This document shows positions 5 through 56,077 of a stretch of DNA of 64,000 nucleotides, piece by piece. Position numbers and translations under genes: made by a program. This stretch comes from Cordylochernes scorpioides (lineage: Eukaryota; Arthropoda; Arachnida; Pseudoscorpiones; Chernetidae), in the NCBI GenBank assembly GCA_030710605.1, contig CP092863.1:120633586-120697585 (forward strand), given 5' to 3'. Within the stretch, counting starts at the first letter, position 1; each line of letters opens with the position of its first letter. Below the pieces are notes generated by a model. That model had not been told where the DNA came from. It worked only from the letters and a program-made list of their open reading frames with translations, and made no database searches.

Positions 5-267
5 GACATATATTAGATCAAAAAATCATTTATTTAACCAATATTTCAGTTGGCTGAATGCCAACCTTTATCAAGGTATTATAACATATTAATGTGTGTC
101 AACAACAAACTCAGCGCCATATTTTTAAAACTTAATTCTATTGACGTTATTTGGCGCTGAGTTTGTTGTTGACACACATTAAAAATGTTATAACACCTTG
201 ATAAAGGTTGGCGTTCAGCCAACTGAAATATTGGTAAAATAAATGATATTTTGATTCAATATATGTC
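5..267. repeat. Foldback element, family A, copy 1
   Basis: Inverted repeat with arms of roughly 115 bp (about 5-118 and 153-267) around a short spacer. The arms carry the motif GCCAACCTTTATC and, on the inner side, AAACTCAGCGCC. The same arm sequence recurs at 483-733, 46736-46835, 49785-49930 and 54370-54649, each time with a different spacer. Outer boundaries of several copies carry GAAAATAGAGCAATCCAT. No protein is encoded. I infer a non-autonomous element, possibly PLE-related because of the hammerhead-like fold in each arm. Confidence 0.8.
195..235 (+). ncRNA. Hammerhead-like fold, degenerate core (family A)
   Basis: Stem I ACC 195-197 with GGT 233-235; heptamer TTGATAA 198-204 in place of CUGANGA; stem II GGTTGGC 206-212 with GCCAACT 218-224; GAA 225-227; self-complementary ATAT 228-231; T232 in the cleavage position. 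Two core positions differ from consensus, so catalysis is doubtful. Architecture matches the better copies elsewhere in the window. Confidence 0.4.
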
Positions 268-482
268 TTTTTAATTAAAGAATAAACATATATAAAATGT
301 AAATTATAGATATTTCTTCTAAAACAATAAAAATGTTTTATCAATAAATCAATAAAATACAGTATACATAAAACATTAACAACTTGTGTTTCACGATAGC
401 AGTACCATATTGTTTTAAGCCTTTTATCAATCAACCAGACGCGATATTTAAATATATTTTTGAAAATAGAGCAATCCATATT

Positions 483-733
483 TAATTCATTAGATAATAA
501 AAAGGCATATATTGGATTTAATAAAATATTTATTTTGCCAATATTTCGGCTGGCTGAACGCCAACCTTTATCGAGGCATTACATCTTTGTATACACTACT
601 TTACTACTTTTGTATATACTACTTTGTATACAAAGATATAATGCCTCGATAAAGGTTGGCGTTCAGCCAGCCGAAATATTGGCAAAATAAATATTTTATT
701 AAATCCAATATATGCCTTTTTATTATCTAATTC
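483..733. repeat. Foldback element, family A, copy 2
   Basis: Arms of about 108 bp (483-591 and 623-733) differ at only a few positions and flank a spacer of short direct repeats (ACTACTTT-like). Outside the left arm lies the family terminal motif GAAAATAGAGCAATCCAT at 462-479. The spacer differs completely from copy 1, which suggests that the arm, not the whole palindrome, is the mobile unit (inference). Confidence 0.8.
642..684 (+). ncRNA. Hammerhead-like fold, degenerate core (family A)
   Basis: Stem I TGCC 642-645 with GGCA 681-684; heptamer TCGATAA 646-652; stem II GGTTGGC 654-660 with GCCAGCC 666-672; GAA 673-675; ATAT 676-679; T680. Relative to the copy at 195-235, stem I has changed on both sides (A-T to G-C at the third pair), a compensatory change that supports selection on, or descent of, a paired RNA. 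Confidence 0.45.
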
Positions 734-740
734 AAATATA

Positions 741-967
741 TAGTTAAACCTGTCTATAGCGCCCCCTCTTGGGACTCACGTAGTACGAAGCGATTTACAT
801 TAAAAGTGATCTGTCTATAGCAACCCCTCCCTCTCTATAGCGCCCGATTTTAAATACGTAGTACGATGCGATTTACATTAAAAGTGACCTATCTATAGCA
901 CCCCCTCTCTATAGCCCCCTATTTTGGTGAGTCCCAAAAGGGGACGCTATAGACAGGTTTAACTGTA
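741..967. mobile_element. TIR MITE, family C (pogo-like ends), copy 1
   Basis: Both ends carry inverted AGTTAAACCTGTCTATAGCG, and the interior holds repeated blocks of TCTATAGC and GATTTACATTAAAAGTGA. Non-coding. Ends of the CAGT-AAACC-TATA type are typical of Tc1/mariner-pogo superfamily MITEs. Further copies: 1402-1579, 5721-5896, 61672-61852. Confidence 0.75.
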
Positions 968-1401
968 TAGAAAAAAAACTAAATTCTACGAATCATTCTT
1001 CATTTCCATCAAATGCAGCTTTCCAACAACAAAAAAAGGCTTAAATTCAATTTCAAATTAATCCTATTTACCTATTCACAAAATATTCCATTAAAAACAT
1101 TCTTTTTATTCTTTAATGAATTTAATGATAAAGATAAATAATAATAAAAAAGAAACGACACATCATTTATCTTCTAATTCAAATTTCTCAAATAATAAAA
1201 AATAAGCAGACGACAATCTAATGATTATTCATTTTCTAGGAATCGTTATAAGAAAAATGATAAATTTTTATCCTCCCCCTTCAAACAGATAAAAAAAAAG
1301 AAATTCATAGATAAATCAATTTTATTGAAATTTTTTTAAAAATCCAAAAGTGCAATATTAACTTTATTTAATCTGCTAATTCTCTCTGTATATAAATGAA
1401 A
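968..1401. other. AT-rich stretch, nothing recognised
   Basis: No open frame of note, no tRNA signature and no long repeat seen. Ordinary AT-rich intergenic DNA by eye. Confidence 0.6.
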
Positions 1402-1579
1402 TACAGTTAAACCTCTCTATAGCGCCTCCTCTTGGGACTCACCAAAATAGGGTGCTATAGAGTGTTATAGACAGGTCACTTTTAATGTAAAAAACGCATC
1501 ATACTACTTATTTAAAATCGGGCGCTATAGAGAGGGAGACGCTATTTAGAGTGGGCGTTATAGACAGGTTTAACTGTAT
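1402..1579. mobile_element. TIR MITE, family C, copy 2
   Basis: Begins TACAGTTAAACC and ends GGTTTAACTGTA, flanked by TA. Shorter interior than copy 1 but with the same GCTATAGAG and TTTTAATGTAAA blocks. Confidence 0.75.
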
Positions 1580-3238
1580 ATATATTTTTTTTTCTAAAAA
1601 GAGAGAGTTTAGTTAGGAATAGTTTAAATAATTATTTTTTCCCGCGCAATTTTCAAATTTTCGGCTGCTGCTCAGCAGGATACTAATTTTATTTTGACCA
1701 ATGAAATATTCAATTTTGATAAAACAAATGAGCACGAAAGTATATTACTTTTCATTTAAAAAAAAAAGGTTTAAAAAATATATAATTCAATTTTTCATAA
1801 ATAAAATATATAAATATAATAATTATATTCAAACACACAAACTTTATAATAGAAAAATGGTCTTCGCTATATAAAATATATATTTTTTAAATCTTGCTGA
1901 TTAAATATTGTATATTTATTTATTTACCAGTTAAGACATGCTATATCCGATCTGGATAATTGCGCGTGAAACTATTTACAATAATTGTAGTAGAGTAGGT
2001 AACAGAATTATCAAAAAGAAAATAAACAACTAAGAAAAAGAACATTAAATAAACATATACATTAAACAAATATGCAACAACATAAGCAGATAGAAGAAAT
2101 AGCAAGGTAGTTATTTACGGTATGTTAAGCAATGATGGAAGTTGATTTAATGAAGTTATCTGTAATAATTAGTATCGTGGAGAGAGAAAGTTGATCAAGT
2201 TGAGTTATTTACAATGAGTTATATTCTAAAGTAACTTATTAATTATTTACATTGATGTAAATCAAGTCGCCTAGTAGTGTAGTTCCTCAAGCTGCATGAA
2301 GCTGTCTATAATGTATATAGTTTAAAACTATAAATATCTTATTAAAAAAAATACCATTTATAATCATAAGAACACAAGACAGACTTTCAAAACATAATTA
2401 TAATATATTTTCAAAAATATATACGTATAATCTTCAATATTTTTCCTTGTGAAAATATTTATTCAATTTAATTATACATCTATTTTTATATAAATTCTAT
2501 TTGCATATAAATTCTAATGCTTTTTTCTTTATTTATCCAGTAAAAATATTTGTTATCTAAATATATATCGATATTTGCGCAAGATAAATATGTAATTATT
2601 TACCTATATATGCAAATATTCCAATTATATCAATATTTAATGCTTAATTTTTTAAATAAATAATGACTATTTAAAAAATCTTTTGATTTTTTTTTATAAT
2701 TTAATTATTAGCCTTAGGCACTAGTTATAATAAATATTAACATTGGTCGCGAGGTAAACCCACAGAATATTTTAAAAATATTTATATATATTTGCTCTTC
2801 TCTATAAAACTTTCTCTTCGCTTATTCCTTTTTTCACCCAGCCTATGACGCGTAACTGCCAATGCTTTTCTGGTGTTACTTTTTTTTTCTATCTTTTTTA
2901 TTATAATATATTCTAACTAATTATTTATTACAAACAAATTTTAAAAAACAAACCTCACATGTTCAAATAAAAAAAATATATATATAAATCTTAAAATTCT
3001 CATAACTATACTATTTGATACAGAATTAGCTTCCTGTTCTGACTCAAAATCAATTCAAAATCTGTAGTTCTTAATATTTTACTTTTCCTATTTTTTTCCA
3101 AATAAAAAATTACTATTAATATATATATATAAACATATACTTTGAAATATAAATATAACATTTTATGAATAATATTCTAAGTGGTGCATTAAGACAAAGA
3201 ATATTTCATATTATATATAAATATATATACAAATTTAT
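1580..3238. other. AT-rich stretch, nothing recognised
   Basis: Runs of A, T and TA with no coding signal, no structured RNA and no clear terminal repeats found. Degraded repeats cannot be excluded. Confidence 0.55.
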
Positions 3239-4529: not shown

Positions 4530-4534
4530 ATAGA

Positions 4535-6984: not shown

Positions 6985-7150
6985 CTGTCTTCCTTTTCAA
7001 GGCATTATTTGTCTACTCTCTACTTGATAAATCAAGAAAATGGTTTTTGACTAAATATCAAGGAACAGGTTAAATCAATGTTTAGTTGATTTCTGTTCCA
7101 CTAAATAGCACTCTGCTATCTAAAATGCTCATGTACTCGTTTAAAATTTG
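6985..7150 (+). repeat. Partial copy of the hammerhead-bearing repeat (family H)
   Basis: Shares TTGATAAATCAAGAAA, GGTTAAATCAATGTTTAGTTGA and the CTGCTATCTAAAATGCTCATGT segment with 55.6-56.0 kb and 19.3-19.7 kb, but the ribozyme segment itself is not present. Confidence 0.6.
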
Positions 7151-10783: not shown

Positions 10784-11133
10784 GTTGTTTTAATGCTTGG
10801 TATTTAAGATTTAGAATACATTTATAATTTAAATATTTTTATTCAATTAAGATTATAATTACACAAGCATAACATTTAAATATATATATTTCCTGCCTAA
10901 CAACTCTCTATACTCACTATATAACATTAAGCGATCTATTTACATTTTGTTTTGGTCACTGGTCCAATATTTTTACTTTCACAGACCAAATTATAAGATT
11001 AATTCACAGATGAAAAATATGCAAAATAACTAAACAAATATATACATCAATTTGATATTTATTTAAAACAAATGAATAACTATATACATCAATTTAATAT
11101 TTATTTAAAACAAATGAACAACTATATACATCA
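10784..11133 (-). repeat. LTR arm, right (5' LTR for the gag frame)
   Basis: Mirror image of 9240-9589. On the minus strand it ends AAAACA(AC), followed by TGGCGACGAGG, the expected position and style of a gypsy primer-binding site. Confidence 0.88.
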
Positions 11134-12819
11134 CAATCATGTCAGATGTTTTGAATTTTCGCAAAGTCTGCGCAAGATGGGTCCCGCGTTTGCTCTCAGA
11201 AAATCACAAGCAACAACGGATGGAGGCAGCCCGAGCTTTCCTGGAAATGCATCGAAGAGATGGAGATCAACTGTTTTCCCGTATTGTCACTGAAGATGAA
11301 AGCTGGGTGCATCATTCAACTCCAGAAACAAAACGACAAAGCATGGTGTGGAAGAAGCCTGAGGAAAGTGCACCAAAAAAGGCGAAGGTCACAATCTCTG
11401 CAGGCAAAGTTATGGCTATCGTCTTTTGGGACTGTAAGGGTGTTTTATTGGTTGAATACCTGCCCCCAAACACTACGGTTAACGCTGCGAGGTACTGCGA
11501 AGTCCTCACTAAACTCAGAGTTGCAATAAAACGGAAACGTCCTGGACTTTTGTCTTGGAAAGTGTTACTCGTCCATGATAATGCTCGCCCTCACGCAGCT
11601 CGAACGACCCAAACGTTGCTGGAAAACTTCAAATGGGAAATTTTCACACATCCACCTTATCTTCCGGATCTTGCCCCAAGCGACTTCCATCTTTTTCCAG
11701 CACTAGAGTTGCACCTTGGAGGCAAGCACTTTGCGAATGATAACGAAGTGCAGACGGAGGCGAACCACTGGCTACCTAGACTGGACACGGCTTGGTACAA
11801 CAGTGGTATCAAAAAATTGCTACAACGGTACCAAAAACGTTTGGACAGAAATGGTGATTATGTAGAGAAGTAGTCTATGAGTTGTATAATGAAAATAAAA
11901 TAACTGCATAATTGTAAATAATGTTGTTTATTTGTGAAAAAAATAGGGAAACTTATTTATTGGATGGCCCTCGTATATCGGGATTGAGACAATAACTCTG
12001 AAAGATATTACAGTGACCTTTATTGAAGACACACGTGATAACCAATATACACTCGTAGACCAAACTTAAGGAAGTTGTACCTTTTAGCATGTATATCGGG
12101 ATTGAGACAATAACTCTGAAAGATATTACAGTGACCTTTATTGAAGACATACGTGATAACCAATATACACTCATGGACAAAACTTAAGGAAGTTGTACCA
12201 TTCAGCATGTATATCGGGATTGAAACAATAACTCTGAAAGATATTTGATGCATAATGACTTTTTTTAAAGACACACGAGATAACCACGTATGAAAAAAAT
12301 ATCCTCATTTCCTAAAAAAAAGCAGACGACCTGCGACATCAAAGACTTTTCTCTTCCTTAAGTTTTTCCATGAGAGTGTTTTTATATTATATAATATATG
12401 TATATAATATAAAGTTGCGGTAAAATGTTATTCATATGCAAAAAGAAGCACCTCTCCCTTTAAAAATGCATTCAATGTGACAATTTACATTTTAAAAAAA
12501 ATTGCTCGCCTTGAAAAGAGTAAAAAAAGATTAAGAAGAAATAAGATGAGACTATGATGATTCATCTCCTGATGAGTCAATTCAATATTAAAAGATGGCT
12601 AGAGCCATCTATCGGAATAAATATAAAATTTTGACATGTCCAATGACATGATAATAAGTGTCTTACTTATCATAAATAGATATATCCTTCACTATAGCTT
12701 ACAATCCTCAACACTATAACTCTTTTAACCTAATCTTATATGTTATTGTTTGGGCTATATGCCAAATAGACGATTAATCAAAGAACTATTTTAGTAACTT
12801 TATATAAAAGGGCATAGCT

Positions 12820-14170
12820 GGATCTGTAAAGAAAAAAATAAATTCTCAAAATATTTCGAGAGATTGCTCCCTCTTTATCAATTTATTTCACAGTGATTCA
12901 TGCCCAATATGCAAATCAGTTTATTATCGAACCAAGTTGCATATACCGGAGTATAAACATTGAATATGGCTATTTTTATTCAACTCGATATCGTTTTACA
13001 GTTTCATCTAGATAGGTCAAATATGGAAGGGTATGCGGATCAAGCATAATATGCAAATTTCAAAACTTATATCCATAGTTTTGCACAGTGTGCAATAAAT
13101 TGATAAAGAGGGAGCAATCTGTCGAAATATTTTGAGAATTTTTTTTTCTTTACAGATCCAGGTTACGTCTTTTTATATAGTCTTAATTGATGGATCGCCT
13201 TTTGACTCAAACTATTATAGTTACATTGGTGTAAATAAGTTGTTCCATATTAGCTGACAATATCCCGGAGAGAACTTCAATAAGATATAGAGTTGCGTGT
13301 CAGAAGGATTCTCAGTTCATAACTCCGGGATATGCAACTTCGCTCCGATGATAATGTATACAAAGCAATAACGCACTATCTATAATATATATAACAAATG
13401 GAAACATTGAGACACAAATGTTTCTTTTCACAAATAAATCAAACTTTTATTGTCCTTACTGCGATGAAAATATAGTGGAAGGGCTTGACTCATCAGTTCT
13501 ACTATCCTAAAAAACGTATGTCCATAGTTTACTTAAATACCATTTCTGAGATTCAACCCTTCAGTGTAGCATATATAAGCAGAATGATCCAATCGACAGA
13601 ACGAGTCTCAGTTCATAACTCCGGGATATGCAACTTTGTCCGATGATAAACTAATTTATACAAAGCAATAATGTGCCATCTATATATTGGAAATGAAATC
13701 CTTTTTAAATCACAATGTTTCTTTTATACACAAAACAAACTTCTACTGCCCTTTCTGCGATGAAAAAATATATTAGAAGGGCTTGGCTCATCAGTGTTGG
13801 ACCCCTCCCAGCGATTTCGCCAATTTAATCTACCAGACCGCTTCTTAGAGATATAATAATGTATTGGACAATTCTGCTTATATATGCCATACTGAAGGGT
13901 GGAATCTCAAAAATGTTTTTCAAGATAATTATGGATATAAGCTTTGAAATTTGCATAGTATGCTTGATCCGCATACCTTTCCATATTTGACCTATCTAGA
14001 TGAAACTGTGAAACGATATCGAGTTGAATTAAAATCAGCCATATTCAATGTTTACACTCCGGTATATGCAACTTGGTCCGACAAGAAACTCATTTGCATA
14101 TTGGGCATGATTCGCATACTCAGATGAAACCTGTCGAATAAGTTCAATAAAGATATATTCTGAGAAATGT
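12820..14170. repeat. Large foldback region built of family F repeats
   Basis: Segments at about 12894-13085 and 13935-14110 are inverted copies (ATGCAAAT, GGTCAAATATGGAA and CAACTCGATATCG words). Outer blocks near 12855-12893 and 13086-13135 also pair (TTGATAAAGAGGGAGCAATC). Between them lie two direct copies (about 13310-13600 and 13606-13900) of a unit with TAACTCCGGGATATGCAACTT and the TACTGCGATGAAAA ... GGCTCATCAG block. No coding capacity seen. Confidence 0.65.
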
Positions 14171-19332: not shown

Positions 19333-19690
19333 ATCAAAGGAGGCATATCCTGACCACGAGCACATGTGCTTTTTAGATAGCAGAGTGCCATATAATGGAA
19401 TAGAAATCAACTGAACGTTGATTTAACCTGTTCCTTTATATTTGGCCAACTCATATACCTGATAAATCATTATTTCACACACACACACATATATTAAAAA
19501 TAAAGAAAGCATATCCTGACCAGGAGCACATGTGCTTTACAGAAGGCAGAGCGCCATCTAGTGGAACAGAAATCAACTAAACATTGATTTAGCCTGTTCC
19601 CTGATATTTGGCCAACCCAAATCCACGAACGCGTTTCGCGCTGTTGGCGCTCGTCAGCGTGGAGTAGGCTGTACCACTGCGACCCAAAAA
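19333..19690 (-). repeat. Hammerhead-bearing tandem repeat (family H), copy on minus strand
   Basis: Contains two directly repeated partial units, each with the CCTGACCA(C/G)GAGCACATGTGCTTT segment (about 19350 and 19518) and the GATTTA(A/G)CCTGTTCC segment, followed at the high end by a complete hammerhead motif (19622-19663). The unit is the same as at 55608-56010. Confidence 0.8.
19622..19663 (-). ncRNA. Hammerhead ribozyme, type I, minimal stem III
   Basis: Read on the minus strand: stem I TCCACG / CGTGGA (6 bp); core CTGACGA; stem II GCGC-CAACA-GCGC; GAA; the self-complementary ACGCGT as stem III (A15.1 to U16.1); U at position 17; then stem I. Every conserved hammerhead core base is present. 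A stem III this short would be weak as a monomer and could form between two copies, as described for PLE hammerheads. Identical over 42 nt to 55826-55867. Confidence 0.8.
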
Positions 19691-19794
19691 CATATATATA
19701 TATTATATTAATTTGAAAAAAATATTTTTGAGTGAGTTTCTGCTTGATATTTGATCATGTTGAGGATTATTGTAATGGTGGTGCAGTCGTGGCT

Positions 19795-23856: not shown

Positions 23857-23892
23857 ATATATATATATATGCTTGAAAATAGAGCAATCCAT

Positions 23893-24474
23893 ATATATAT
23901 ATATTTAAAAATGCCTATTTTGGATCATAAAGTTTTTATTTCCGATATTTCGTGAGGCAACTCGTCAAACTTCCTCTGGGAACAAAATGGCTTTAGAGAA
24001 GCTCGCGTATCATTTCGCGAGTATATACAACCGCTATAAAATTTAGATATCTAGAATCTACAATATGCATGCCTCTATGAATATAATAATTAATAATAAT
24101 ATAATATGTAAAACATTAATATATAGAGAATTAAGTAAATATATACATTTAAAATAAACGAATTGAAAATCAGCAATTTGCCATATATATACATATATTT
24201 TCAATTCGTTTATTTTAAATGTATATATTTACTTAATTCTCTATATATTAATGTTTTACATATTATATTATTATTAATTATTATATTCATAGAGGCATGC
24301 ATATTGTAGATTCTAGATATTTAAATTTTATAGCGGTTGTATATACTCGCGAAATGATACGCGAGCTTCTCTAAAGCCATTTTGTTCCCAGAGGAAGTTT
24401 GGCGAGTTGCCTCACGAAATATCGGAAATAAAAACTTTATGATCCAAAATAGGCATTTTTAAATATATATATAT
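23893..24474. repeat. Near-perfect 278-bp-arm palindrome
   Basis: Arms about 23893-24170 and 24197-24474 differ at only about two positions seen (one in the GCAACTCG(T/C)CAAAC block, one in ATTTA(G/A)ATATC). The spacer is about 26 bp. Each arm carries a CGAAATATCGGAAATAAA end; a related arm end is at about 47490-47560. Confidence 0.88.
24385..24427 (+). ncRNA. Hammerhead-like fold, degenerate core
   Basis: Stem I TTCC 24385-24388 with GGAA 24424-24427; CAGAGGA 24389-24395 (one base from CUGANGA); imperfect stem II around GGCGAGTTGCC; GAA 24416-24418; ATAT 24419-24422; C24423. An equivalent lies on the minus strand in the other arm. Confidence 0.4.
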
Positions 24475-32600: not shown

Positions 32601-34678
32601 TCAGCATGTATATCGGGATTGAGACAATAACTCTGAAAGATATTACAGTGATCTTTATTGAAGACACACGAGAAAACCAATATATATTCATGGACAAAAC
32701 TTGAGGAATTTGTGCCTTTCAGCATGTATATCGGGATTGAGACAATAATTCTGAAAGATATTACAGTGACCTTTATTGAAGACACACGATATAACCAATA
32801 TACACTCATGGACAAAACTTAAGGAAGTTGTACCTTTCAGCATGTATATCGAGATTGAGACAATAACTCTGAAATACGTATATTACAGTGACCCTTATTG
32901 AAGACATACGAGATAACCAATATACACTCATGGACAAAACTTAAGGAAGTTGTACCTTTCAGCATGTATATCGGGATTGAGACAATAACTCTGAAAGATA
33001 TTACAGTGACCTTTATTGAAGACATACGAGATAACCAATATACACTCATGGACAAAACTTTAAGAGGTTTTACCTTTTACCATGTATATCGTGATTGAGA
33101 CAATAACTCTGAAAGATATTACAGTGACATTTATTGAAGACACACGAGAAAACCAATATATATTCATGGACAAAACTTAAGGAATTTGTGCCTTTCAGCA
33201 TGTATATCGGGATTGAGACAATAATTCTGAAAGATATTACAGTGACCTTTATTGAAGACACACGAGATAACCAATATACACTCATGGCAAAACTTAAGGA
33301 AGTTGTGCCTTTCAGCATGTATATCGGGATTGAGACAATAACTCTGAAAGATATTACAGTGACCTTTATTGAAGACATACGAGATAACCAATATACACTC
33401 ATGGACAAAACTTAAGGAAGTTGTACCTTTTAGCATGTATATCGGGATTGAGACAATAACTCTGAAATACGTATATTACAGTGACCCTTATTGAAGACAT
33501 ACGAGATAACCAATATACACTCATGGACAAAACTTAAGGAAGTTGTACCTTTCAGCATGTATATCGGGATTGAGACAATAACTCTGAAAGATATTACAGT
33601 GACCTTTATTGAAGACATACGAGATAACCAATATACACTCATGGACAAAACTTAAGGAAGTTGTACCTTTTAGTATGTATATCGGGTTTGAGACAATAAC
33701 TCTGAAAGATATTACAGTGACCTTTATTGAAGATACACGAGATAACCAATATACACTCATGGACAAAACTTAAGGAAGTTGTACCTCTTAGTATGTCTAT
33801 CGGGATTCAGACAATAACTCTGAAAGATATTACAGTGACCTTTATTGAAGACACACGAGATAACCAATATACACTCATGGACAAAACTTAAGGAAGTTGT
33901 ACCTTTTAGCATGTATATCGGGATTGAGACAATAACTCTGAAATACGTATATTACAGTGACCTTTATTGAAGACATACGAGATAACCAATATACACTCAT
34001 GGACAAAACTTAAGGAAGTTGTACCTTCCAGCATGTATATCGGGATTGAGACAATAACTCTGAAATACGTATATTACAGTGACCCTTATTGAAGACATAC
34101 GAGATAACCAATATACACACATGGACAAAACTTAAGGAAGTTGTACCTTTCAGCATGTATATCGGGATTGAGACAATAACTCTGAAAGATATTACAGTGA
34201 CCTTTATTGAAGACATACGAGATAACCAATATACACTCATGGACAAAACTTAAGGAAGTTGTACCTTTTAGTATGTATATCGAGTTTGAGACAATAACTC
34301 TGAAAGATATTACAGTGACCTTTATTGAAGATACACGAGATAATCAATATACACTCACGGACAAAACTTAAGGAAGTTGTACCTCTTAGTATGTATATCG
34401 GGATTCAGACAATAACTCTGAAAGATATTACAGTGACCTTTATTGAAGACACACGAGATAACCAATATACACTCTCATGGACAAAACTTAAGGAAGTTTT
34501 ACCTTTCAGCATGTATATCGGGATTGAGACAATAACTCTTAAAGATATTACAGTGATCTTTATTGAAGACACACGAGATAACCAATATACACTCATGGAC
34601 AAAACTTAAGGAAGTTGTACCTTTCAGCATGTAAATCAGGATTGAGACAATAACTCTGAAAGATATCACAGTAACCTC
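29606..34678 (+). repeat. Satellite array: about 43 units of the 118-bp MITE repeat
   Basis: Units start ACTCATGGACAAAACTTAAG and contain TATCGGGATTGAGACAATAA and CACGAGATAACC. The period is 118 bp, 121 bp in units carrying an extra ACGTAT (AAATACGTATATTACAG). Because 118 is not a multiple of 3, each unit reads on into its neighbour in a shifted frame, producing repeated ~80-residue spurious reading frames. The left third is homogeneous (TTTCAGCATG, CACACGAG). From about 30.5 kb, variants recur in a fixed order: TTTTAGTATG with GGGTTTGAG, TCTTAGTATG with GGATTCAG, TTTTAGCATG with ACGTAT. That is a higher-order repeat. The array ends abruptly at AGTAACCTCC near 34678. Confidence 0.95.
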
Positions 34679-36735: not shown

Positions 36736-36778
36736 TAAAATACTCAGGAGATAAGTTTCTTCATTGATTTATTAAGAC

Positions 36779-36816
36779 ATCAAGCTTTCGGGCACAGCGT
36801 GGCCCTTCTACAGGAT
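36779..36816 (-). ncRNA. Hammerhead-like fold downstream of the PLE frame
   Basis: Minus strand: ATC / GAT short stem I; CTGTAGA (A6 changed to T); stem II GGGC / GCCC; GAA; self-complementary AGCT; T at the cleavage position. It lies about 340 bp 3' of the GIY-YIG frame on the same strand, the position expected for a PLE terminal ribozyme. Confidence 0.45.
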
Positions 36817-37152
36817 CAATTGTATAAGAAAAATGATACACTATATACACGAAGAATAAATTTGCATATGTATTATTAGAAATTAGTTGTAAAATTTTGA
36901 AATAATCGGTAATACTTAGGATTTTTGTTTAAAAAGAACATCGAGACTTAAGCAAATTAACAAAATCTGCCAAGAAGAAAAAAATACACGAATATTAAAA
37001 GGCACTAAGACAAAAGCGCAATAAGACCAAAAGGACGTTCCCACGGTTCGACGGAAACTGTGCTAAAACTATGAGTATTTACAAGGTAAAGCAGTTTAAA
37101 AGGATATTAAAATAAATGAACAAAACAGGGAATTCATGGGGTACATCAATGG

Positions 37153-37581
37153 CTATTTATGTAATAAGCTTATATACGGCTCAGGTACATCAATATGTCT
37201 GTTTATACTGTTAAACCTCAGAGATAGCAAGGCCTCGACAACCAATCTTTTGTGTTTATGTGGTATATTAGAATAATGTGATTTTGGATCAGTTGTGTTG
37301 AAACTATGTCCTGTCTGTGAAATGTGCTGGACAATAAGTGATTTCGGATCGTTATGTCTGATGTTTCTGTCGTGTTCCTGTATTCTGTCTTTAATGTAAC
37401 GGCCAGTTTCACCTACATAAACACTGTCGCAATCGTTGCATTTTATGGAATAAACAGCATTGTTTCTTTGAACAGTGTTCCGAGGCGTGTTGTTTTTAGT
37501 GATAGGGTTCCTTAAGATAGTGCCTATACTGGGAGTGTTGGAAAAGTAAGTGCGGATGCCGAAATGTTTGCAGTGATGGCT
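37153..37581 (-). pseudogene. Penelope-like element, C-terminal GIY-YIG fragment
   Basis: An open frame of about 142 codons entered after a TGA and ending at TAG 37153-37155. It reads ...RNTVQRNNAVYSIKC, then CDSVYVGETGRYIKDRIQEH, followed by HISQTGHSF. VY and VYVGE are the two halves of the GIY-YIG nuclease signature, followed by the expected arginine and histidine region. GIY-YIG after a reverse transcriptase is diagnostic of Penelope-like retroelements, which use it to nick target DNA. The RT part is absent from the window, so this is a 5'-truncated copy. The hammerhead-like motif at 36779-36816 follows on the same strand. Confidence 0.82.
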
Positions 37582-40641: not shown

Positions 40642-43600
40642 CTATTGCTCCTTAAATCTCACGGGTTTCTTGATTATTCTCCCCGATCTTGTCCTAGGCA
40701 GGTCTGGTGCTGATCCTGTTCCTTGGAATTCTGTGTACTTCTCCACATCTGGTGGGTCAGGATTCTGTTGGCACGATGTAGAAGGCAGCGCTCCCGACAC
40801 GATGGGTCTTGGTGCAGTAGGGTGTTCTGCAGTTATATTGTCCGAATCTGCCAGTAAGTATGCAGGTCGCAATCGGTCAATCGATGTGGTAACATTTTTT
40901 CCTTTCACTTTGAGTGTGAAATACTTGTCTGTTCTTTCAAGGACTGGGAAGGGTCCCTCATATGGTGGTTCCAGAGGTTTCTTCACTCGATCTGTCCTGA
41001 TAAATACATGTGAACATGTTTTCAGATCTTTATGAACAAATACTTTAGTCTTCGAATGATGTTTTTCATTTAAGGGTTTGAGCAATTCCATTTGCTTTTG
41101 AAGCTGCTGAACAAATTCTTCAGCATGCAGGTGATGTTTAGAAGCATCAAAGAATTCGCCAGGCAGTCTGATGGTTTTGCCATATACCATCTGAGACAAA
41201 GAATGGTTGGTATCTTTGTTGATAGCAGCACGCAAGCCTAGGAGAACTGTTGGCAGCGTTTCTGTCCACTTAATATTATTGTGGGCACGAATGGCAGTTT
41301 TAATGGTTCTATGAAGCCTTTCAATCTTCCCGTTACACTGAGGGTGGTACGCCGTGGAATGACGAAGTTTGATACCACACAGCGTTGTTAAATCTTTGAA
41401 AAGCTGAGAAGTAAACTGCTTTCCTTGATCTGATATCACTGTATGCGGTGCTCCAAATCTAACAATCCAGTTTTCGTAGAACGCTCTCGCTACCGTTTCA
41501 GACTTCATATCTGGTAGCGGAACAACTTCCATCCAGCTGGTGTACCTGTCGATGCAGGTCAGACAGTAGATGTTACCATTCGATGGAGGTAAAGCACCAA
41601 TTAGATCTATGTGGATAACACTAAATCTTTCATCCACTTCTTGATATTTGCCTATTTCTGATTTTGTGTGTATCGACACCTTGCACTTTTGGCAGTTGAC
41701 ACAAGCTTGAGCCCATTTCCTAATGTCTTTATTCATATTGGGCCATATAAATCTTGATGTTAATTGTTTAATAGTGGCTTTGATGCCTGGGTGTGAGAGT
41801 TCGTGGAAGTTCAAAAAAACCATCATTCGGAATTTAATTGGAATGAATGGTCTAATATTATTAGTAGACACGTCACACCATAACAAATTGCCTGATTGTA
41901 GTGGGCATTGCTTAAATTTTAGAGAAGTATTCTTTGAAATCAGGTTTTGTAGTTCTGAATCACCAGTTTGTTCTTTGGCGATCTCTTCATAGTCGATAGT
42001 TGTGATAGCATCAACTCTGGAAAGAGCATCGGCGACTATGTTGTCAGTACCTTTTATGTACTTGATATCAGTAGTGAATTGGGAAATGTATTGTAGATGT
42101 CTTAATTGTTTAGGAGAAGCTTTCTCATTTTTTTGTTTGAATGCGTAAATTAAAGGTTTGTGATCAGTCAAAATTGTAAATTCACGTGCCTCAAGCAGGT
42201 GCTTGAAGAATTTGATGGACAAATATATTGCGAGAAGCTCTCTATCATATGTACTATAATTGCATTGAGCAGGATTTAATTTTTTAGAGAAAAATGCTAT
42301 TGGTTTCCAATTATTATTGTCAAGCTGTTGGAGAACTGATCCAACTGCCCGATCTGAAGCATCTGTACAGAGTGAGATAGGCAGTTCAGTATCGGGGTAG
42401 GCTAACAGTGCTGTATTAGCTAGGGCTTGTTTGCATTTTTCAAACTGAACTTCAGCTTCTTCAGTCCATTTTATTTCGCTTCTATCCTTTTTCTTGGCTC
42501 CCCTCAAGTATTCATGAAGGATTGCCTGAGTCTCTGCGGCATTGTTGAAAAAAGTTCGATAAAAGTTTAGCATTCCCAAAAATATGCGTAATTCATGAAC
42601 TGTTTTTGGTTTCTTATATTCTAGAATAGCTTTAACCTTTGTTGGGAGTGGTTTCACACCGTGAGAGGTAATTAGATATCCTAGAAAATCAATTTCCTGT
42701 ACTAGGAATTTAGATTTAGAAAGATTGATTCTTAATCCATAGAAATTTAGTCTGCTGAATAAGGTTTCTAGGTGGCTATAATGCTCTTCCTCTGTTTTAG
42801 AGGCTACCAGAATATCATCTAAGTAGACAAATGCAAAGTCCAAGTTTCTTAAGACTTCATGCATGAATCTCTGAAAGGTAGCAGTAGCATTTCTAAGACC
42901 GAAACTCATTACATTAAATTCGAATAGCCCAAAAGGAGTAATGATGGCAGTCTTAGGTTTATCCTCTTCAGCAATTGGAATCTGATGGAATGCTTTGCAT
43001 AGGTCTATTTTTGAGTACACACGAGTACCTTTTAAGATGTGGTGGAAATCGTCCAGTCTAGGGATTGGATAACGATCTGGAAGTGTAACTGCATTGAGTC
43101 TTCTATAATCACCACAAGGTCTTAGTGACTCGTCCTTTTTTGAAACTAAATGTAGTGGACTCGCCCAAGGAGAATTTGAGGGTCTAATTATTCCATTATT
43201 CAACATATATTGAAATTCTGCCTTAGCAAGAGTTAATCTCTGTGAATCTAGACGACGGGCTTTTGAGTGAATTGGCTGACCTCTTGTAGGAATATAATGC
43301 TTAACGCTATGTTTTGCTTCTACAAAATCTGATGGTGGCCTACATAGGTTAGGATATTTGGTTAGGATAACGCTGACCTTGGATGATGAATTTAGAGTGC
43401 TAATATTTCCCATGTCTGAGATTGACTGAATGACGCCTCTTATGGACAGATTAGTTATTCCATCAATTAGGCGTTTATTTTTTATATCGATAATTAATCC
43501 AAAGTTGTTCAAAAAATCGGCTCCTATTATTGCTCTGTTAGTATTGGCGATTACAAAAGGCCATTGGAATTGACGTCGAAGTCCGATATCCAAATTTCTA

Positions 43601-43827
43601 ACCTTTGTTCCATAGGTAACAATTTCTGTACCATTGGCTGCATATAATTTATAATCAGAGCTAGGCATCCTATTTTTATCCTTTGGAGGTATTATAGATA
43701 TATCAGCACCACTGTCCACTAAAAAGCGCAATCCCGTGTTTTTGTCCGTCACAAATAATCGGAGATTGCGACAATCCTGAATGTCGGCGGAAGAGTTTGT
43801 CGCTACTCTGTCCGCCGGTTGGAGTTT
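40642..43827 (-). CDS. Pol polyprotein (protease, RT, RNase H, integrase)
   Basis: The frame is open from just after a TGA near 43834 to the stop at 40642. The main body is at least 1,036 residues counted from GTG 43752, with no stop or gap. Protease: FLVDSGADISIIP (DSG at about 13-15). Reverse transcriptase: SPWASPLHLVSKKD near 194, FVYLDDILVAS with YLDD at 310-313. RNase H: LCTDASDRAVGSVL near 461, TDHKPL near 529. Integrase: HHCC zinc finger (H650, H654, C684, C687) and catalytic D716, D775, E811, with 35 residues between the last two, i.e. D,D35E. The C-terminal tail carries no chromodomain. All catalytic residues are present. It is expressed only as a fusion after gag, in the -1 frame. 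Likely functional, though expression is unproven. Confidence 0.93.
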   Translation of the reverse strand, partial: KLQPADRVATNSSADIQDCRNLRLFVTDKNTGLRFLVDSGADISIIPPKDKNRMPSSDYKLYAANGTEIVTYGTKVRNLDIGLRRQFQWPFVIANTNRAIIGADFLNNFGLIIDIKNKRLIDGITNLSIRGVIQSISDMGNISTLNSSSKVSVILTKYPNLCRPPSDFVEAKHSVKHYIPTRGQPIHSKARRLDSQRLTLAKAEFQYMLNNGIIRPSNSPWASPLHLVSKKDESLRPCGDYRRLNAVTLPDRYPIPRLDDFHHILKGTRVYSKIDLCKAFHQIPIAEEDKPKTAIITPFGLFEFNVMSFGLRNATATFQRFMHEVLRNLDFAFVYLDDILVASKTEEEHYSHLETLFSRLNFYGLRINLSKSKFLVQEIDFLGYLITSHGVKPLPTKVKAILEYKKPKTVHELRIFLGMLNFYRTFFNNAAETQAILHEYLRGAKKKDRSEIKWTEEAEVQFEKCKQALANTALLAYPDTELPISLCTDASDRAVGSVLQQLDNNNWKPIAFFSKKLNPAQCNYSTYDRELLAIYLSIKFFKHLLEAREFTILTDHKPLIYAFKQKNEKASPKQLRHLQYISQFTTDIKYIKGTDNIVADALSRVDAITTIDYEEIAKEQTGDSELQNLISKNTSLKFKQCPLQSGNLLWCDVSTNNIRPFIPIKFRMMVFLNFHELSHPGIKATIKQLTSRFIWPNMNKDIRKWAQACVNCQKCKVSIHTKSEIGKYQEVDERFSVIHIDLIGALPPSNGNIYCLTCIDRYTSWMEVVPLPDMKSETVARAFYENWIVRFGAPHTVISDQGKQFTSQLFKDLTTLCGIKLRHSTAYHPQCNGKIERLHRTIKTAIRAHNNIKWTETLPTVLLGLRAAINKDTNHSLSQMVYGKTIRLPGEFFDASKHHLHAEEFVQQLQKQMELLKPLNEKHHSKTKVFVHKDLKTCSHVFIRTDRVKKPLEPPYEGPFPVLERTDKYFTLKVKGKNVTTSIDRLRPAYLLADSDNITAEHPTAPRPIVSGALPSTSCQQNPDPPDVEKYTEFQGTGSAPDLPRTRSGRIIKKPVRFKEQ

Positions 43828-44597
43828 TCCGACTCATTCCAACTGCACGGAGATCTGCATTTATTTTGCAAGCAATTAGGACCAAATCTAAAATGGTAAT
43901 AGCAGTATTTCCCTTTTGGATCGAAAGATCTTTGAGAATTACTTCTCGGTCTTGACTGAGTCCTATTTTTGGATCGAGATCTAGATCTATCCAGTCTCAA
44001 TTCGGACACCTGCCGTTCAAGATCTTCCAATTTGGCGATCAAGCGATCTGTTGATGAAGAAGGCACTTCCGCATCATATATTTCTTTGGAAGAGTTTATT
44101 TCATTTATTTTATCGGCCATTATGGCCAATTTGCTAATGTCCTCTTCGCTTACAATAAGTATGTTCTTTATGGATGTGGGCAGTTTATCAAGCCATAAAG
44201 TTTTTATTAAATTGTCAGAGATATCTGGGGTAGCGAGGGATCTGAGCTTTTGTAGTAACTGGCTCGGCTTCATGTCTCCGAGCTCAATACCTGAAATTAA
44301 CTTTTTAATTCTCAACCCTTCACTTTCTCTGAACAATTCAAGTAGTCGTGATTTACATTCAGAGTACTTGTTGTCGCTTTTGCTATTAATTATGTCCCAA
44401 ATGTTTTCTATATATTTAGGTTCTAATTGGGAGATCAAATAATTAAATTTAGTGTCTTCCTGAATAATTCCACCTATTTTGAACTGTGCTTCTACCTGGA
44501 AGAACCATATTTCAGGTTTTTCAACCCAGAAAGGCGGTATTTTAACACTAACTTTGCATATTTCTGAGGTATCGCTAGGCTTATTTTCTGTTTCCAT
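43803..44597 (-). CDS. Gag of the CsRn1-clade element
   Basis: 264 residues from the ATG at 44597; the frame extends 8 codons further up only via GTG. Capsid region PPFWVEKPEIWFFQVEAQF, then TKFNYLISQLEPKY, is typical of CsRn1/Kabuki-type Gag. The C-terminal basic RSRSRSKNRTQSRPRS stretch is followed by CYYHFRFGPNC and KCRSPCSW, the unusual C-H-C-C motif that distinguishes this clade from elements with CCHC knuckles. The protein packages the element's RNA into particles. It ends at TAG 43803-43805, overlapping pol by about 30 nt. Confidence 0.9.
   Translation of the reverse strand: METENKPSDTSEICKVSVKIPPFWVEKPEIWFFQVEAQFKIGGIIQEDTKFNYLISQLEPKYIENIWDIINSKSDNKYSECKSRLLELFRESEGLRIKKLISGIELGDMKPSQLLQKLRSLATPDISDNLIKTLWLDKLPTSIKNILIVSEEDISKLAIMADKINEINSSKEIYDAEVPSSSTDRLIAKLEDLERQVSELRLDRSRSRSKNRTQSRPRSNSQRSFDPKGKYCYYHFRFGPNCLQNKCRSPCSWNESENSNRRTE
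43824..43830 (-). promoter_or_regulatory. Candidate -1 frameshift site, gag-pol overlap
   Basis: Minus-strand GGAAAAC sits inside the only window where gag (stop at 43803) and pol (opened by a TGA near 43834) overlap. Pol is -1 relative to gag. The heptamer departs from the strict X-XXY-YYZ form, so the exact slip point is an inference. Confidence 0.4.
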
Positions 44598-44821
44598 TTT
44601 ACGTAAATTTAAATTCGACACAACAGCTTAGAGATAAAGTTAAAAATAAAAATATTGAGATAAAATAACAAGGAAGATAATATAAAAACTTATCTTAGTC
44701 TTGAGATGATATCCCGATATCCTGGATGATGCTTCTTTTCAAGCTTGAATCACTTTTTGCATTTCTTTATCTCTTGAAATCTTCGTATGCTTTTTCTTTT
44801 CAATCACGTCCGGCTCACCAA

Positions 44822-46385: not shown

Positions 46386-46835
46386 AAATAGAGCAATCCA
46401 TAAATAAATCTTTAATTAAAATGGCATATTGTTGCACCAAGTTGGCAGACTCTTCAACCTTGATTCTCTCCTGTGCCGGGTCTTACCGTGTTTCAACCAT
46501 CCTACAAATTTATATAAGTGGAGATAACTTTAAGTAGCCTCCAGAATAATTTATTTATTTCTCACATCAAACAGAGCAGTGAAGTCACACAGTGTACCTA
46601 AATACAAATGGTAATTCTATAATACATATATTTTGCTATAATATATATATTCTGTTTAATAAAATAAAAATTTGAATTTAATATATATGAAAATTAATAT
46701 TACAAATTAAAATAAAATAGGTTCATTAGCCATGATTCAACAATATATTGGATCAAAATATCATTTATTTTACCAATATTTCAGTTGGCTGAATGCCAAC
46801 CTTTATCAAGGTATTATAACATTTTAAAGTGTGTA
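46386..46835 (+). repeat. Family A foldback, left half, itself interrupted
   Basis: GAAAATAGAGCAATCCAT at 46386 leads into the family arm, which breaks off near 46430 and resumes at 46736 (ATATTGGATCAAAATATC) as far as TAACATTTTAAAGTGTG. The complementary right half lies at 49785-49930 with a matching inner end, so the pair may be one palindrome opened by later insertions (inference). Confidence 0.55.
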
Positions 46836-47489: not shown

Positions 47490-47560
47490 TTATAAATATA
47501 TTTTTTATTCCGATATTTCGAGGGGCAACTCGCCTCTCTTTTTCAAGGATGTTTGTCACT
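47490..47560 (-). repeat. Single arm related to the 24-kb palindrome
   Basis: Plus strand TTTATTCCGATATTTCGAGG then GGCAACTCGCCTCT. On the minus strand a stem II (GAG-GGC / GCC-CTC), GAA and ATAT keep the hammerhead-like layout with a poor core. Confidence 0.5.
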
Positions 47561-49199: not shown

Positions 49200-49260
49200 T
49201 AAGGAAAAATCTTGACGAAGTAAAGGCGTACAGCCTAGCGAAATATTGGGTTTTTGTAAT
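49200..49260 (+). repeat. Hammerhead-like repeat end
   Basis: TTGACGAAGTAAAGGC ... GCCTAGCGAAATATTGGG: a core one base from consensus (C3 to T), stem II AGGC / GCCT, GAA, ATAT, T. Flanking A-run and T-run could form the rest of stem I. Confidence 0.4.
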
Positions 49261-49784: not shown

Positions 49785-49932
49785 ACACTTTGACACACTT
49801 TAAAATGTTATAACACCTTGATAAAGGTTGGCGTTCAGCCAACTGAAATATTGGTAAAATAAATGTTATTTTGATCCAATATATGCCTTTTTAATTAAAG
49901 ATTTATTTATGGATTGCTCTATTTTCAATATA
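49785..49932. repeat. Family A foldback, right half
   Basis: ACCTTGATAAAGGTTGGCG ... CTGAAATATTGG, ending ATGGATTGCTCTATTTTC. Contains the same hammerhead-like fold as 195-235. Confidence 0.75.
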
Positions 49933-52794: not shown

Positions 52795-52870
52795 GTGCAA
52801 TAAATTGATAAAGAGAGAGCGCAATCTCTCGAAATATTTTGATAAAATTTGATTTTCTTTCTACATATCC
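52795..52870 (+). repeat. Hammerhead-like repeat end (shared with 13.1 kb)
   Basis: AATTGATAAAGAGAGAGCGC ... TCTCTCGAAATATTTTGAT; same heptamer TTGATAA, hairpin, GAA-ATAT-T layout as family A but a different stem II. Confidence 0.4.
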
Positions 52871-53825: not shown

Positions 53826-53845
53826 TATTCGTAATATAGTTACTA

Positions 53846-54045
53846 TTTAGAAAGAGGGAATCATATATCGCCGCAACTCTTTTTATTAACGCGATTAAGG
53901 AAGCTTTCGGGCAAGCCCTTCTTCAGCTAACTATAGTTACTACTATAGTGTACACTATAGTTAGCTGAAGAAGGGCTTGCCCGAAAGCTTCCTTAATCGC
54001 GTTAATAAAAAGAGTTGCGGCGATATATGATTCCCTCTTTCTAAA
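53846..54045. repeat. Perfect 92-bp-arm palindrome with hammerhead-like cores
   Basis: Arms 53846-53937 and 53954-54045 appear identical as inverted copies; the 16-bp spacer is itself made of TATAGT words. Each arm contains CTGAAGA, GGGC-TT-GCCC, GAAAGCTT. Confidence 0.9.
53965..53990 (+). ncRNA. Hammerhead-like core, canonical heptamer
   Basis: CTGAAGA 53965-53971, stem II GGGC 53973-53976 / GCCC 53979-53982 with a 2-nt loop, GAA 53983-53985, self-complementary AGCT 53986-53989, T53990. Stem I is poor (only the first pair, G-C), so activity is uncertain. The mirror copy is on the minus strand at about 53901-53926. Confidence 0.5.
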
Positions 54046-54369: not shown

Positions 54370-54780
54370 ATTAGATAATGAAAAGACATATATTGGATTT
54401 AATAAAAGATTTATTTGCCAATATTTCGGTTGGCTGAACGCCAACCTTTATCAAGGAATTACAATTTTGTATACACAAACTCAGCGCCGCATAGTGTTAT
54501 AATATAACTGTGATATTATAACATTATGCGGCGCTGAGTTTGTGTATACAAAAATGTAATGCCTCGATAAAGGTTGGCGTTCAGCTAGCCGAAATATTGG
54601 CAATTGAACTTTTATTCTCAATCCAATATATGTCTTTTTATTATCTAATGATTTAAATATGGATTGTTCTATTTTCAGAACAATATATATATAAAGTTTG
54701 GCGTTCAGTCAACTAAAATATTGATGAAATAAATGATATTTTTAATCCAATATATGTATTTTTATTTAAAGAACGATATA
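54370..54780. repeat. Foldback element, family A, copy 3, plus adjacent fragment
   Basis: Arms about 54370-54499 and 54515-54649, meeting at AAACTCAGCGCCGCATA and its inverse. The right end leads to ATGGATTGTTCTATTTTC. A further partial arm follows at 54700-54780. Confidence 0.8.
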
Positions 54781-54982
54781 TATATATGAAGATTCTAAAA
54801 TTATTTTCACACGAGATATAATTAATTCTTTATTTACGATTTATTTTCAGATAGAGATAATTTCTTTCATCCCTTATATATTAAAGTTTTATTATTTAAA
54901 AAATTAAATTTATTGTGTTTATAAATAGAATACGTTCGACCAGGTTTTTTAGGTTTATAATAAATTAAATTTATTATTATCC

Positions 54983-55212
54983 CCCCCCCCCCGAGTACAC
55001 GTGATATAGACCATGATAATCCTTGTTGGTAGTTAGTAACTGATTTTTACTATACGTGCAACACATGTCTACATATGTAGAAAGTTGTTCGACCTTTTTA
55101 TTTACAAGTGTGCCAGAGCCCTGTTTGGTTACTTGCACTAAAAAAAAAAAATTCCAATGCAGGCTTCGTTCCCAAGTCGTAGCTATAAAAATCAACATTT
55201 TATACTATTCCT
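54983..55212 (-). repeat. SINE copy, diverged
   Basis: GAGTACACGTGATATAGACC, CTACATATGTAG and GTTTGGTTACTTGCAC are recognisable, with a decayed tRNA-like head. A C-run of 11 precedes it. Confidence 0.7.
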
Positions 55213-55290
55213 ATAGTAGTATATCAAAAGTGCGAGTTTTTTGCAGCAACATGTTTATTAAAAATTGAAATACAAGGTAATAAGACCAAA

Positions 55291-55400
55291 CTCGCTTGTT
55301 CGGCGGTACATATACTAAAATTGGAAGGATATAGATAAGATTAGCATGGCCCCTGCGCAAGGATGACACGCAAAAGCGTGATACATTTCACTTTTTTTTT
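55291..55400 (+). ncRNA. U6 snRNA copy, altered ACAGAGA box
   Basis: Starts near CTCGCTTGTTCGGC; ACATATACTAAAATTGGA and AAGATTAGCATGGCCCCTGC are as in canonical U6, as is GCGCAAGGATGACACGC. The spliceosomal ACAGAGA box (pairs with the 5' splice site) reads ATAGATA; the AGC triad is retained. The 3' part diverges after ACACGCAAAAGCGTG and ends in a T-run (55392-55400), a pol III terminator. The two box changes make a pseudogene the likeliest reading; a variant U6 is the alternative. Confidence 0.85.
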
Positions 55401-55607
55401 GTCTAATTGCATTGTGTTTATAATCTATAATCCAAATTTTGCCTTATCATTAAAAGTAAAATATAAATATAATAAATATTTATAAGATTATTATTATTTT
55501 TTTATATATTATAATTGTAGCGGCTCCCAAATATTAACTTTTCATATTTTAATTATAAGTTTCAATTTGTTTAATAACTATTTAATTCAAATATTAATAT
55601 CTTATAA

Positions 55608-56010
55608 GGCGCTCTGCCATCTAAAAAGCACATGTGCTCGTGGTCAGGAGATGCCTTCTTTATTTTTAATATCAACACCTGACCCACTTATCTTTTATTT
55701 TTTTCTATTGTTTTTTCATGTGTTAAGCGTCTTTACGCAAATTTGGCCAAAAATACCCATTTCTTGATTTTTCGGCAAGCCATTGGGACCAAAAAATATT
55801 TTTGGTCGCAGTGGTTACAGCCTTCTCCACGCTGACGAGCGCCAACAGCGCGAAACGCGTTCGTGGATGGCTTTTCTTGATTTATCAAGAAATTGGGTTG
55901 GCCAAATATCACGGAGCAAGCTAAATAAACGTTTAGTTTATTTTTGCTCCACTAGATGGCGCTCTGCCATCTAAAAAGCACATGTGCTCGTGGTCAGGAG
56001 ATGCCTTCTT
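55608..56010 (+). repeat. Hammerhead-bearing tandem repeat (family H)
   Basis: GGCGCTCTGCCATCTAAAAAG starts a unit at 55608 and again at 55958, a period of 350 bp; the second unit is truncated after about 53 bp. One full hammerhead (55826-55867) lies in the complete unit. A tandem repeat of a few hundred bp with one type I hammerhead per unit is the layout of metazoan retrozymes. Confidence 0.8.
55826..55867 (+). ncRNA. Hammerhead ribozyme, type I, minimal stem III
   Basis: Stem I TCCACG 55826-55831 with CGTGGA 55862-55867; core CTGACGA 55832-55838; stem II GCGC 55839-55842 / GCGC 55848-55851, loop CAACA; GAA 55852-55854; ACGCGT 55855-55860 as self-complementary stem III with A15.1-U16.1; U55861 as position 17, predicted cleavage after it. 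All invariant hammerhead nucleotides are present. GUU is an allowed, if slower, cleavage triplet. Confidence 0.85.
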
Positions 56011-56039
56011 CATTTTTAAATATAATAAAATAAATAATG

Positions 56040-56077
56040 TTTCCTGTTGAAGGACTGACAAGTCCGAAAGCTTGAAA
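56040..56077 (+). ncRNA. Hammerhead-like fold, one core change
   Basis: Stem I TTTC 56040-56043 / GAAA 56074-56077; CTGTTGA 56044-56050 (A6 to T); stem II GGAC 56052-56055 / GTCC 56062-56065; GAA 56066-56068; AGCT 56069-56072; T56073. All three helices pair, with sequences different from the other copies. Confidence 0.5.

What the first reader, a model, noticed from the sequence alone, without database searches (positions are those of the whole stretch)
195..56077. One RNA layout recurs in many unrelated repeat families
At 195, 642, 24385, 28265, 36779 (-), 49200, 52805, 53965, 55826 and 56040 the same order appears: short paired stem I, CUGANGA-like heptamer, hairpin, GAA, a palindromic A..T tetramer or hexamer (ATAT, AGCT, ACGT, ACGCGT), a non-G base, stem I partner. 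Stem sequences differ (ACC/GGT, TGCC/GGCA, TTCC/GGAA, TTTC/GAAA, TCCACG/CGTGGA) yet still pair, and the 195 and 642 copies show compensatory change. This suggests a lineage of hammerhead-derived terminal motifs, many with off-consensus cores (TTGATAA, TCGATAA, CAGAGGA, CTGTNGA). They may be a relaxed ribozyme class or a conserved transposition signal that has lost cleavage.
Basis: partly seen in the sequence, partly recalled or inferred. Interest (0 to 1): 0.85.

Follow-up and report, generated by a model that had tools for sequence, protein, structure and literature searches.

The report
Penelope and retrozyme hammerhead RNA motifs
The recurring RNA layout is the hammerhead self-cleaving motif of two kinds of jumping elements; in this genome most copies of the Penelope-type version carry an altered catalytic core, while a tiny 'retrozyme' element keeps a perfect core and looks as if it is inserted by the same Penelope-type mechanism.

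Summary
The layout is real. It is the type I hammerhead with a palindromic stem III that can only form fully between two copies. Nine of the ten listed sites hold; 28265 is a decayed copy.

Two known kinds of element carry it: (1) pseudo-LTRs of Penelope-like elements (PLEs) and palindromic derivatives with PLE insertion marks, one copy beside a GIY-YIG endonuclease fragment; (2) a 350-bp retrozyme (55826; second copy at 19623-19662 minus) with 19,747 pattern matches genome-wide.

Stems I and II covary between families. Among minimal-motif matches genome-wide, the canonical core has 489, U3-A8 (a compensated C3-G8 swap) 6,101 and A6U 723. The retrozyme stays canonical: 19,747 against 16 U3-A8 and 85 A6U.

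Retrozyme inserts share PLE geometry: head-to-head arms, a variable joint and an extra tail at one outer end in 11 of 12 loci; F8 PLE palindromes show the tail in 10 of 10 and F2 elements in 24 of 24. This supports the published guess that PLE machinery moves animal retrozymes. No cleavage was measured, retrozyme target duplications are masked by (TA)n, and no end sequence clearly shared with a PLE was found.

The parts
1..270 (.). F1 palindromic element; hammerhead-like motifs at 35-79(-) and 193-237(+), core TTGATAA (U3-A8). Further F1 copies 46770-46814(-), 49813-49857(+)
460..733 (.). F2 palindromic element with one-sided tail (about 460-490); motifs at 535-579(-) and 641-685(+), core TCGATAA (U3-A8 plus U4C). 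Further F2 copies 54415-54459(-), 54559-54603(+)
12845..13136 (.). F4 pair: motifs 12845-12886(-) and 13095-13136(+), core TTGATAA; third copy 52800-52843(+)
23873..24470 (.). F3 palindromic element; motifs 23939-23983(-) and 24384-24428(+), core CAGAGGA; tail TTGAAAATAGAGCAATCC (same as F2) near 23873-23893
   Evidence: canonical relatives L069, L094, L097, L098
28263..28305 (+). F12: decayed copy, weak match
   Evidence: E=6.0; intact relatives L065, L090, L096
36722..37563 (-). F8: 5'-truncated Penelope-like element; GIY-YIG reading frame 37153-37581(-), motif 36777-36818(-), core CTGTAGA (A6U)
47507..47551 (-). F5 motif, core TTGAAAA (U3-A8)
49207..49252 (+). F6 motif, core TTGACGA; family canonical elsewhere (CTGACGA)
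53896..53995 (.). F7 palindromic element: motifs 53896-53931(-) and 53960-53995(+), canonical core CTGAAGA; window copy (L031) has a one-sided tail and 12-bp target duplication ATAGTTACTATT
56039..56078 (+). F9 motif, core CTGTTGA (A6U)
55608..56005 (+). F11 retrozyme copy; canonical hammerhead 55827-55866 (extended match 55816-55881)
19509..19694 (-). F11 retrozyme copy; canonical hammerhead 19623-19662(-). Further fragments 19342-19469(-) and 7023-7116(+)

Best explanation
The layout is the type I hammerhead RNA of retroelements. The minimal extra-A copies belong to pseudo-LTRs of Penelope-like elements and to palindromic, non-coding pieces copied in trans by the PLE enzyme (shown for F8 by coding sequence and for F2, F7 and F8 by insertion marks; inferred for the rest). 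The copy at 55826 and its sister belong to a metazoan retrozyme. The palindromic A..T box is stem III, which forms fully only between two copies (inferred, as published for related hammerheads). Retrozyme RNA would cut itself and be closed into a 350-nt circle, so its core stays canonical (inferred). Insertion, as I read it: the PLE enzyme cuts both DNA strands and starts a cDNA at each cut, each on its own RNA, at one of two start sites some 30-55 nt apart; the two cDNAs are joined head to head, so one outer end carries an extra tail; a circular template lets an arm run more than one lap. Shown here: head-to-head order, one-sided tail, variable joint, and target duplications of 11-16 bp for F8 and mostly 11-13 bp for F7. 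Inferred: enzyme, circle and strand events. In the PLE-type motif the core has drifted into large non-canonical lineages: U3-A8, which keeps the core base pair and probably still cuts, and A6U, which probably cuts weakly. Stems I and II are kept, so the fold still matters, perhaps for binding or priming.
For: Motif above chance. Stem I pairs better with its own partner than with re-dealt partners, 0 of 1000 shuffles reaching it, in canonical (n=35) and A6U (n=20) sets; all 11 pairs change on both sides, covariation score 0.344 against 0.159 shuffled and 0.03-0.09 slid. GIY-YIG domain beside F8. One-sided tail: F8 10 of 10 loci read at both ends; F2 24 of 24 loci (21 by score, 3 by eye; 22 after removing duplicated regions); F7 19 one-sided, 0 both, 4 none, 2 not placed by script, the six others one-sided by eye. 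Direct repeats at the insertion site: F8 9 of 9 (mean score 12.3 against 2.5 re-paired); F7 mean 8.9 against 1.4, 17 of 23 loci with score >=9, 13 after removing duplicated regions. Retrozyme: 19,747 matches, control 0, 350-bp tandem spacing; one long and one short outer end in 11 of 12 head-to-head loci. Literature passages.
Against: No cleavage or RNA data. Rfam hammerhead models do not report the minimal motif (18 loci; window at gathering score), and 55826 is below Rfam's gathering score. Contiguous stem I in A6U is not better than re-dealt (345 of 2000); it is only when short offsets are allowed. Retrozyme target duplications cannot be told from (TA)n. One of 12 retrozyme loci (L169) has two short ends. 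Retrozyme ends show no clear similarity to 16 PLE-type pseudo-LTR stretches (3 of 16 just exceed the 95% shuffle level, through T-rich stretches), and its tail is longer (about 53 nt against about 30). Many minimal-motif families were not tied to a PLE here.
Confidence: 0.78

Rival explanations
1. The PLE-type motif is no longer a ribozyme: it is a hairpin plus palindrome recognised by the PLE protein, and the hammerhead look is inherited.
For: U3-A8, U4C and A6U cores far outnumber canonical ones; F8 copies, mostly 98% alike and so young, have A6U. In the Anolis PLE, hammerhead mutants did not change insertion in vitro and no cleavage was seen without protein (PMC11167929, passages).
Against: N7 is the free core position in all classes while positions 5 and 9 hardly vary (partly fixed by the patterns); positions 3 and 8 keep a base pair (odds ratio about 42); stem I, needed for a hammerhead but not for a plain hairpin, is kept.
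Confidence: 0.3
2. The palindromic elements are MITEs or foldback DNA transposons and the motif is a transposase site.
For: Near-perfect inverted repeats with AT-rich ends.
Against: In the F2 and F8 loci read, one end has a tail and the other does not; target duplications of 11-16 bp and a joint that differs between copies; F8 palindromes hold PLE coding sequence in both arms.
Confidence: 0.03
3. Retrozyme head-to-head arms come from LINE-type twin priming or from later recombination, not from a PLE.
For: No clear end similarity between retrozyme and PLE pseudo-LTRs; other non-LTR machinery is also named as possible in print (PMC7229834, passage).
Against: Both outer ends are fixed unit positions differing by about 53 nt; opposite-strand neighbours are 11 head-to-head and 0 tail-to-tail in the printed retrozyme rows and 15 to 0 in the F8 pairs.
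Confidence: 0.25
4. The off-consensus cores are only decay of old copies.
For: True for single copies such as 49200; mixed C3-A8 and U3-G8 rows are largely one-step neighbours of paired families.
Against: The U3-A8 and A6U classes outnumber canonical matches of the same pattern 12 to 1 and 1.5 to 1, occur with varied stem II sequences, and A6U is in copies that are mostly 98% alike.
Confidence: 0.08

Closest known systems
Minimal type I hammerheads in Penelope-like elements (Cervera and de la Pena 2014; Luense et al. 2017, both seen only as references; described in PMC6155905, PMC7761336, passages)
   Same: Site in pseudo-LTRs, minimal stem III, dimer action, dispersed copies in non-coding DNA.
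   Different: Here most matches have a non-canonical core; how far that is so in other genomes was not tested.
Penelope elements of Adineta vaga and Anolis (PMC3846280, PMC11167929, passages)
   Same: Head-to-head pseudo-LTRs, optional tail of about 30 bp on one of them, short target duplications; in Anolis both strands cut and extended from two start sites.
   Different: Here non-coding palindromes built of little more than the pseudo-LTR are common; no full PLE frame was recovered.
Metazoan non-LTR retrozymes (PMC7229834, passages)
   Same: Type I hammerhead, 350-bp tandem units, helix III of one base pair capped by a palindromic tetraloop, thousands of copies.
   Different: Head-to-head arms and a one-sided tail: the word 'inverted' does not occur in that paper.
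Hammerheads with U3-A8, A6C or U4C cores (PMC3088659, passages)
   Same: C3-G8 to U3-A8 covariation in several natural hammerheads.
   Different: Rare there, and core mutants of repeated elements were rejected from the alignments; here U3-A8 is the largest class of the minimal motif.

Membership tests
Type I hammerhead ribozyme | Stems I and II with covariation | tested here: met
Type I hammerhead ribozyme | Core CUGANGA...GAAA with A15.1-U16.1 and H17 | tested here: inconclusive
   met for F7 and F11 in the window and 489 genome matches; not met for U3-A8, A6U and U4C classes
Type I hammerhead ribozyme | Match to an Rfam hammerhead model at gathering score | tested here: not met
   window at gathering score: none; 55816-55881 HH9 28 bits against 52; 18 minimal-motif loci: none
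Type I hammerhead ribozyme | Self-cleavage | not testable with these tools
   needs RNA
Penelope-like element (F8) | GIY-YIG endonuclease | tested here: met
   PF01541, E=2.9e-5
Penelope-like element (F8) | Telomerase-like reverse transcriptase | not tested
   truncated copies only were read
Penelope-like element (F2, F7, F8) | Head-to-head arms, one-sided tail, short target duplication | tested here: met
   target duplications scored for F7 and F8 only
Metazoan retrozyme (F11) | Type I hammerhead in tandem units of 170-400 nt, no coding | tested here: met
   350-bp spacing in printed places, L158
Metazoan retrozyme (F11) | Circular RNA in tissues | not testable with these tools
   no RNA data
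PLE-mobilised cargo (F11) | PLE insertion geometry | tested here: met
   11 of 12 loci
PLE-mobilised cargo (F11) | 11-16 bp target duplication | tested here: inconclusive
   targets are (TA)n in most of 8 loci examined
PLE-mobilised cargo (F11) | Shared end sequence with a PLE | tested here: inconclusive
   no clear similarity in 16 stretches; not all PLE families were available

The most novel reading that the evidence does not exclude
Penelope enzymes insert animal retrozymes: each insert is two independent reverse-transcription runs on RNA circles, primed on the two cut strands at two fixed start sites and joined head to head. In the same genome the demand for cleavage has split: the retrozyme, which needs circles, keeps a perfect core, while the PLE pseudo-LTR hammerheads have largely moved to U3-A8, U4C and A6U cores and may persist as a recognition fold rather than a cutter.
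Probability: 0.5. Interest if true: 0.8.

Novelty: new variant of a known kind. Interest (0 to 1): 0.62.

Why it matters
Which enzyme moves animal retrozymes is a stated guess in print, resting on co-occurrence, tandem copies and shared hammerheads (PMC7229834, PMC7761336, PMC11722881, PMC8969392; passages). A shared insertion geometry is structural evidence that can be checked in any good assembly. What the PLE hammerhead is for is called a mystery in PMC7761336. A genome where the minimal motif mostly has altered cores while a retrozyme keeps a perfect one makes that question testable class by class. I saw no report of the one-sided tail in retrozymes in the searches, which cover only an open-licence library and were read as listings and passages.

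Tried and rejected
Strict layout without the extra A: only 55826 and its sister. Rfam on the minimal motif: no hammerhead. The motif in IMG/VR: 15 matches with poorly paired stem II, taken as chance background. F11 as a tRNA-derived SINE: raised from a box-B-like stretch (recalled); ARAGORN finds no tRNA at 55700-56050 and the 350-bp tandem units favour a retrozyme. DNA search with F11: empty, and the tool warns that it skips very common words. End similarity of retrozyme and PLE: not clear. Tree of pseudo-LTRs: 7 of 36 inner branches starred, too weak to count switches; it needs 2 C3-G8/U3-A8 changes by parsimony and shows four U3-G8 rows together (90/76). Stem tests that were weaker: A6U stem II re-dealt 2.14 against 1.96, 6 of 3000; A6U contiguous stem I 345 of 2000.
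Full report
What was checked. The ten places were read directly. Nine have the stated order; 28265 is weak (E=6.0). With that allowed, and up to two heptamer mismatches, the window has 10 hits in 6 families (one perhaps chance) against a mean of 0.31 and a maximum of 3 in 300 dinucleotide shuffles.

The genome. The window lies in an unnamed assembly of 2.62 Gb and 24 contigs. Whole-genome pattern counts, with the pattern read backwards as control: canonical extra-A core 489 (control 11); U3-A8 6,101 (370); C3-A8 248 (10); U3-G8 286 (19); A6U 723 (49). The raw odds ratio for positions 3 and 8 is about 42. The copies are related, so this is descriptive. The patterns need C11.1 and a fixed G near the end, so F1 and F2 copies with other letters there are missed, and the U4C core TCGATAA (44 of 53 F1/F2-like copies in the fetched loci) was not counted genome-wide. 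Printed rows of the mixed classes are largely one-step neighbours of a paired family; four U3-G8 rows (L116, L117, L118, L121) group together with modest support, as a wobble intermediate might, while the three C3-A8 rows do not group.

The fold. With partners re-dealt among rows, stem I pairing falls from 2.53 to 1.83 (canonical, n=35) and from 2.70 to 1.92 (A6U, n=20), with 0 of 1000 shuffles reaching the observed value (short offsets allowed). Without offsets the A6U set is not significant (345 of 2000), and stem II in A6U is significant but modest. On a structure-fitted alignment of 71 matches (68 distinct) all 11 pairs show changes on both sides, score 0.344 against 0.159 shuffled and 0.03-0.09 slid. 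Those rows were chosen by core pattern, so the 3-8 pair in that table reflects sampling; stems I and II do not. In the 74 typed A6U rows N7 takes all four bases and AGCT is stem III in 47.

What carries the minimal motif. F8 lies in a truncated element with a GIY-YIG domain; its listed copies are 94-98% identical, nearly all long ones 98%. L061 is a head-to-head palindrome with coding sequence in both arms. In 10 of 10 F8 loci read at both ends a tail of about 29 nt is at exactly one outer end, and 9 of 9 scored loci have direct repeats of 11-16 bp. F7 has 12-bp-type duplications (17 of 23 scored loci, 13 after removing duplicated regions) and a one-sided tail in 19 of 25 by script, the others by eye. 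F2 has the tail on one side in 24 of 24, 22 after removing duplicated regions. These are published PLE marks (PMC3846280 and PMC11167929, passages). In the Anolis PLE the tail equals the stretch between two reverse-transcription starts and both DNA strands are cut and extended. F2, F3 and the canonical L094, L098, L099 and L101 share one tail sequence, so canonical and U3-A8 hammerheads occur within one pseudo-LTR group. Many other minimal-motif families were not tied to a PLE here.

The retrozyme. The perfect hammerhead at 55827-55866 scores 28 bits against Rfam Hammerhead_HH9 (E=4.5e-5, gathering score 52). Its pattern has 9,817 and 9,930 matches, control 0. Printed places fall into units of about 350 bp, and stem II occurs as GCGC/GCGC and GGGC/GCCC. 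Stem III is one A-U pair capped by palindromic CGCG, as described for amphibian retrozymes that act as dimers (PMC7229834, passages). Its core stays canonical: 16 U3-A8 and 85 A6U matches.

The link. The 11 head-to-head clusters printed, and L172, were mapped. In 11 of 12 one outer end is at unit position 226-240 and the other at 156-197; in L169 both are short. No two of the 12 share flanks by BLAST of their first 330 nt. The joint in the middle differs between loci. Opposite-strand neighbours are 11 head-to-head, 0 tail-to-tail, as for F8 (15 to 0) and the typed U3-A8 rows (5 to 0). Against a PLE link: the tail is longer, target duplications are hidden in (TA)n, and no clear end similarity was found.

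Reading. The layout is the hammerhead of PLEs and of a retrozyme, both known kinds. U3-A8 is reported in several natural hammerheads and active in vitro (PMC3088659, passages), so the largest class may still cut; A6U has no visible compensation. Since hammerhead mutants did not change insertion in vitro in the Anolis system, loss of cleavage may be tolerable for a PLE but not for an element that lives as an RNA circle. The contrast in core constraint fits that, but no cleavage was measured.

Noticed in passing
L114 (C1:178702280-178703450): An 80-bp tandem array of more than ten units, each holding one CTGATAA hammerhead-like motif and the pseudo-LTR end; a candidate ribozyme satellite.
   Followed up: partly
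L062-L101, 3' of the motif: AATAAA lies within 30 nt 3' of the motif in 15 of 40 copies, against 5 and 5 in the next two 30-nt bins and 2, 2 and 2 upstream; a possible poly(A) signal beside the ribozyme.
   Followed up: partly
window 55608-56078 and L124: A retrozyme and an F9 hammerhead lie side by side in both places, in different order; chimera or nested insertion was not resolved.
   Followed up: no
window 29606-34677; also 11973, 21876, 45566: A 118-bp satellite with about 43 units and dispersed short arrays.
   Followed up: no
window 62580-64000: A 149-bp tandem array running off the window end.
   Followed up: no
window 11118-11873 (+) and 40642-44627 (-): A mariner-type transposase (PF01359) and a long gag-pol-like reading frame of an LTR retrotransposon (judged by eye).
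   Followed up: no
window 55292-55397 (+): U6 snRNA match at gathering score a few hundred bases from the retrozyme copy; may be a retro-copy.
   Followed up: no
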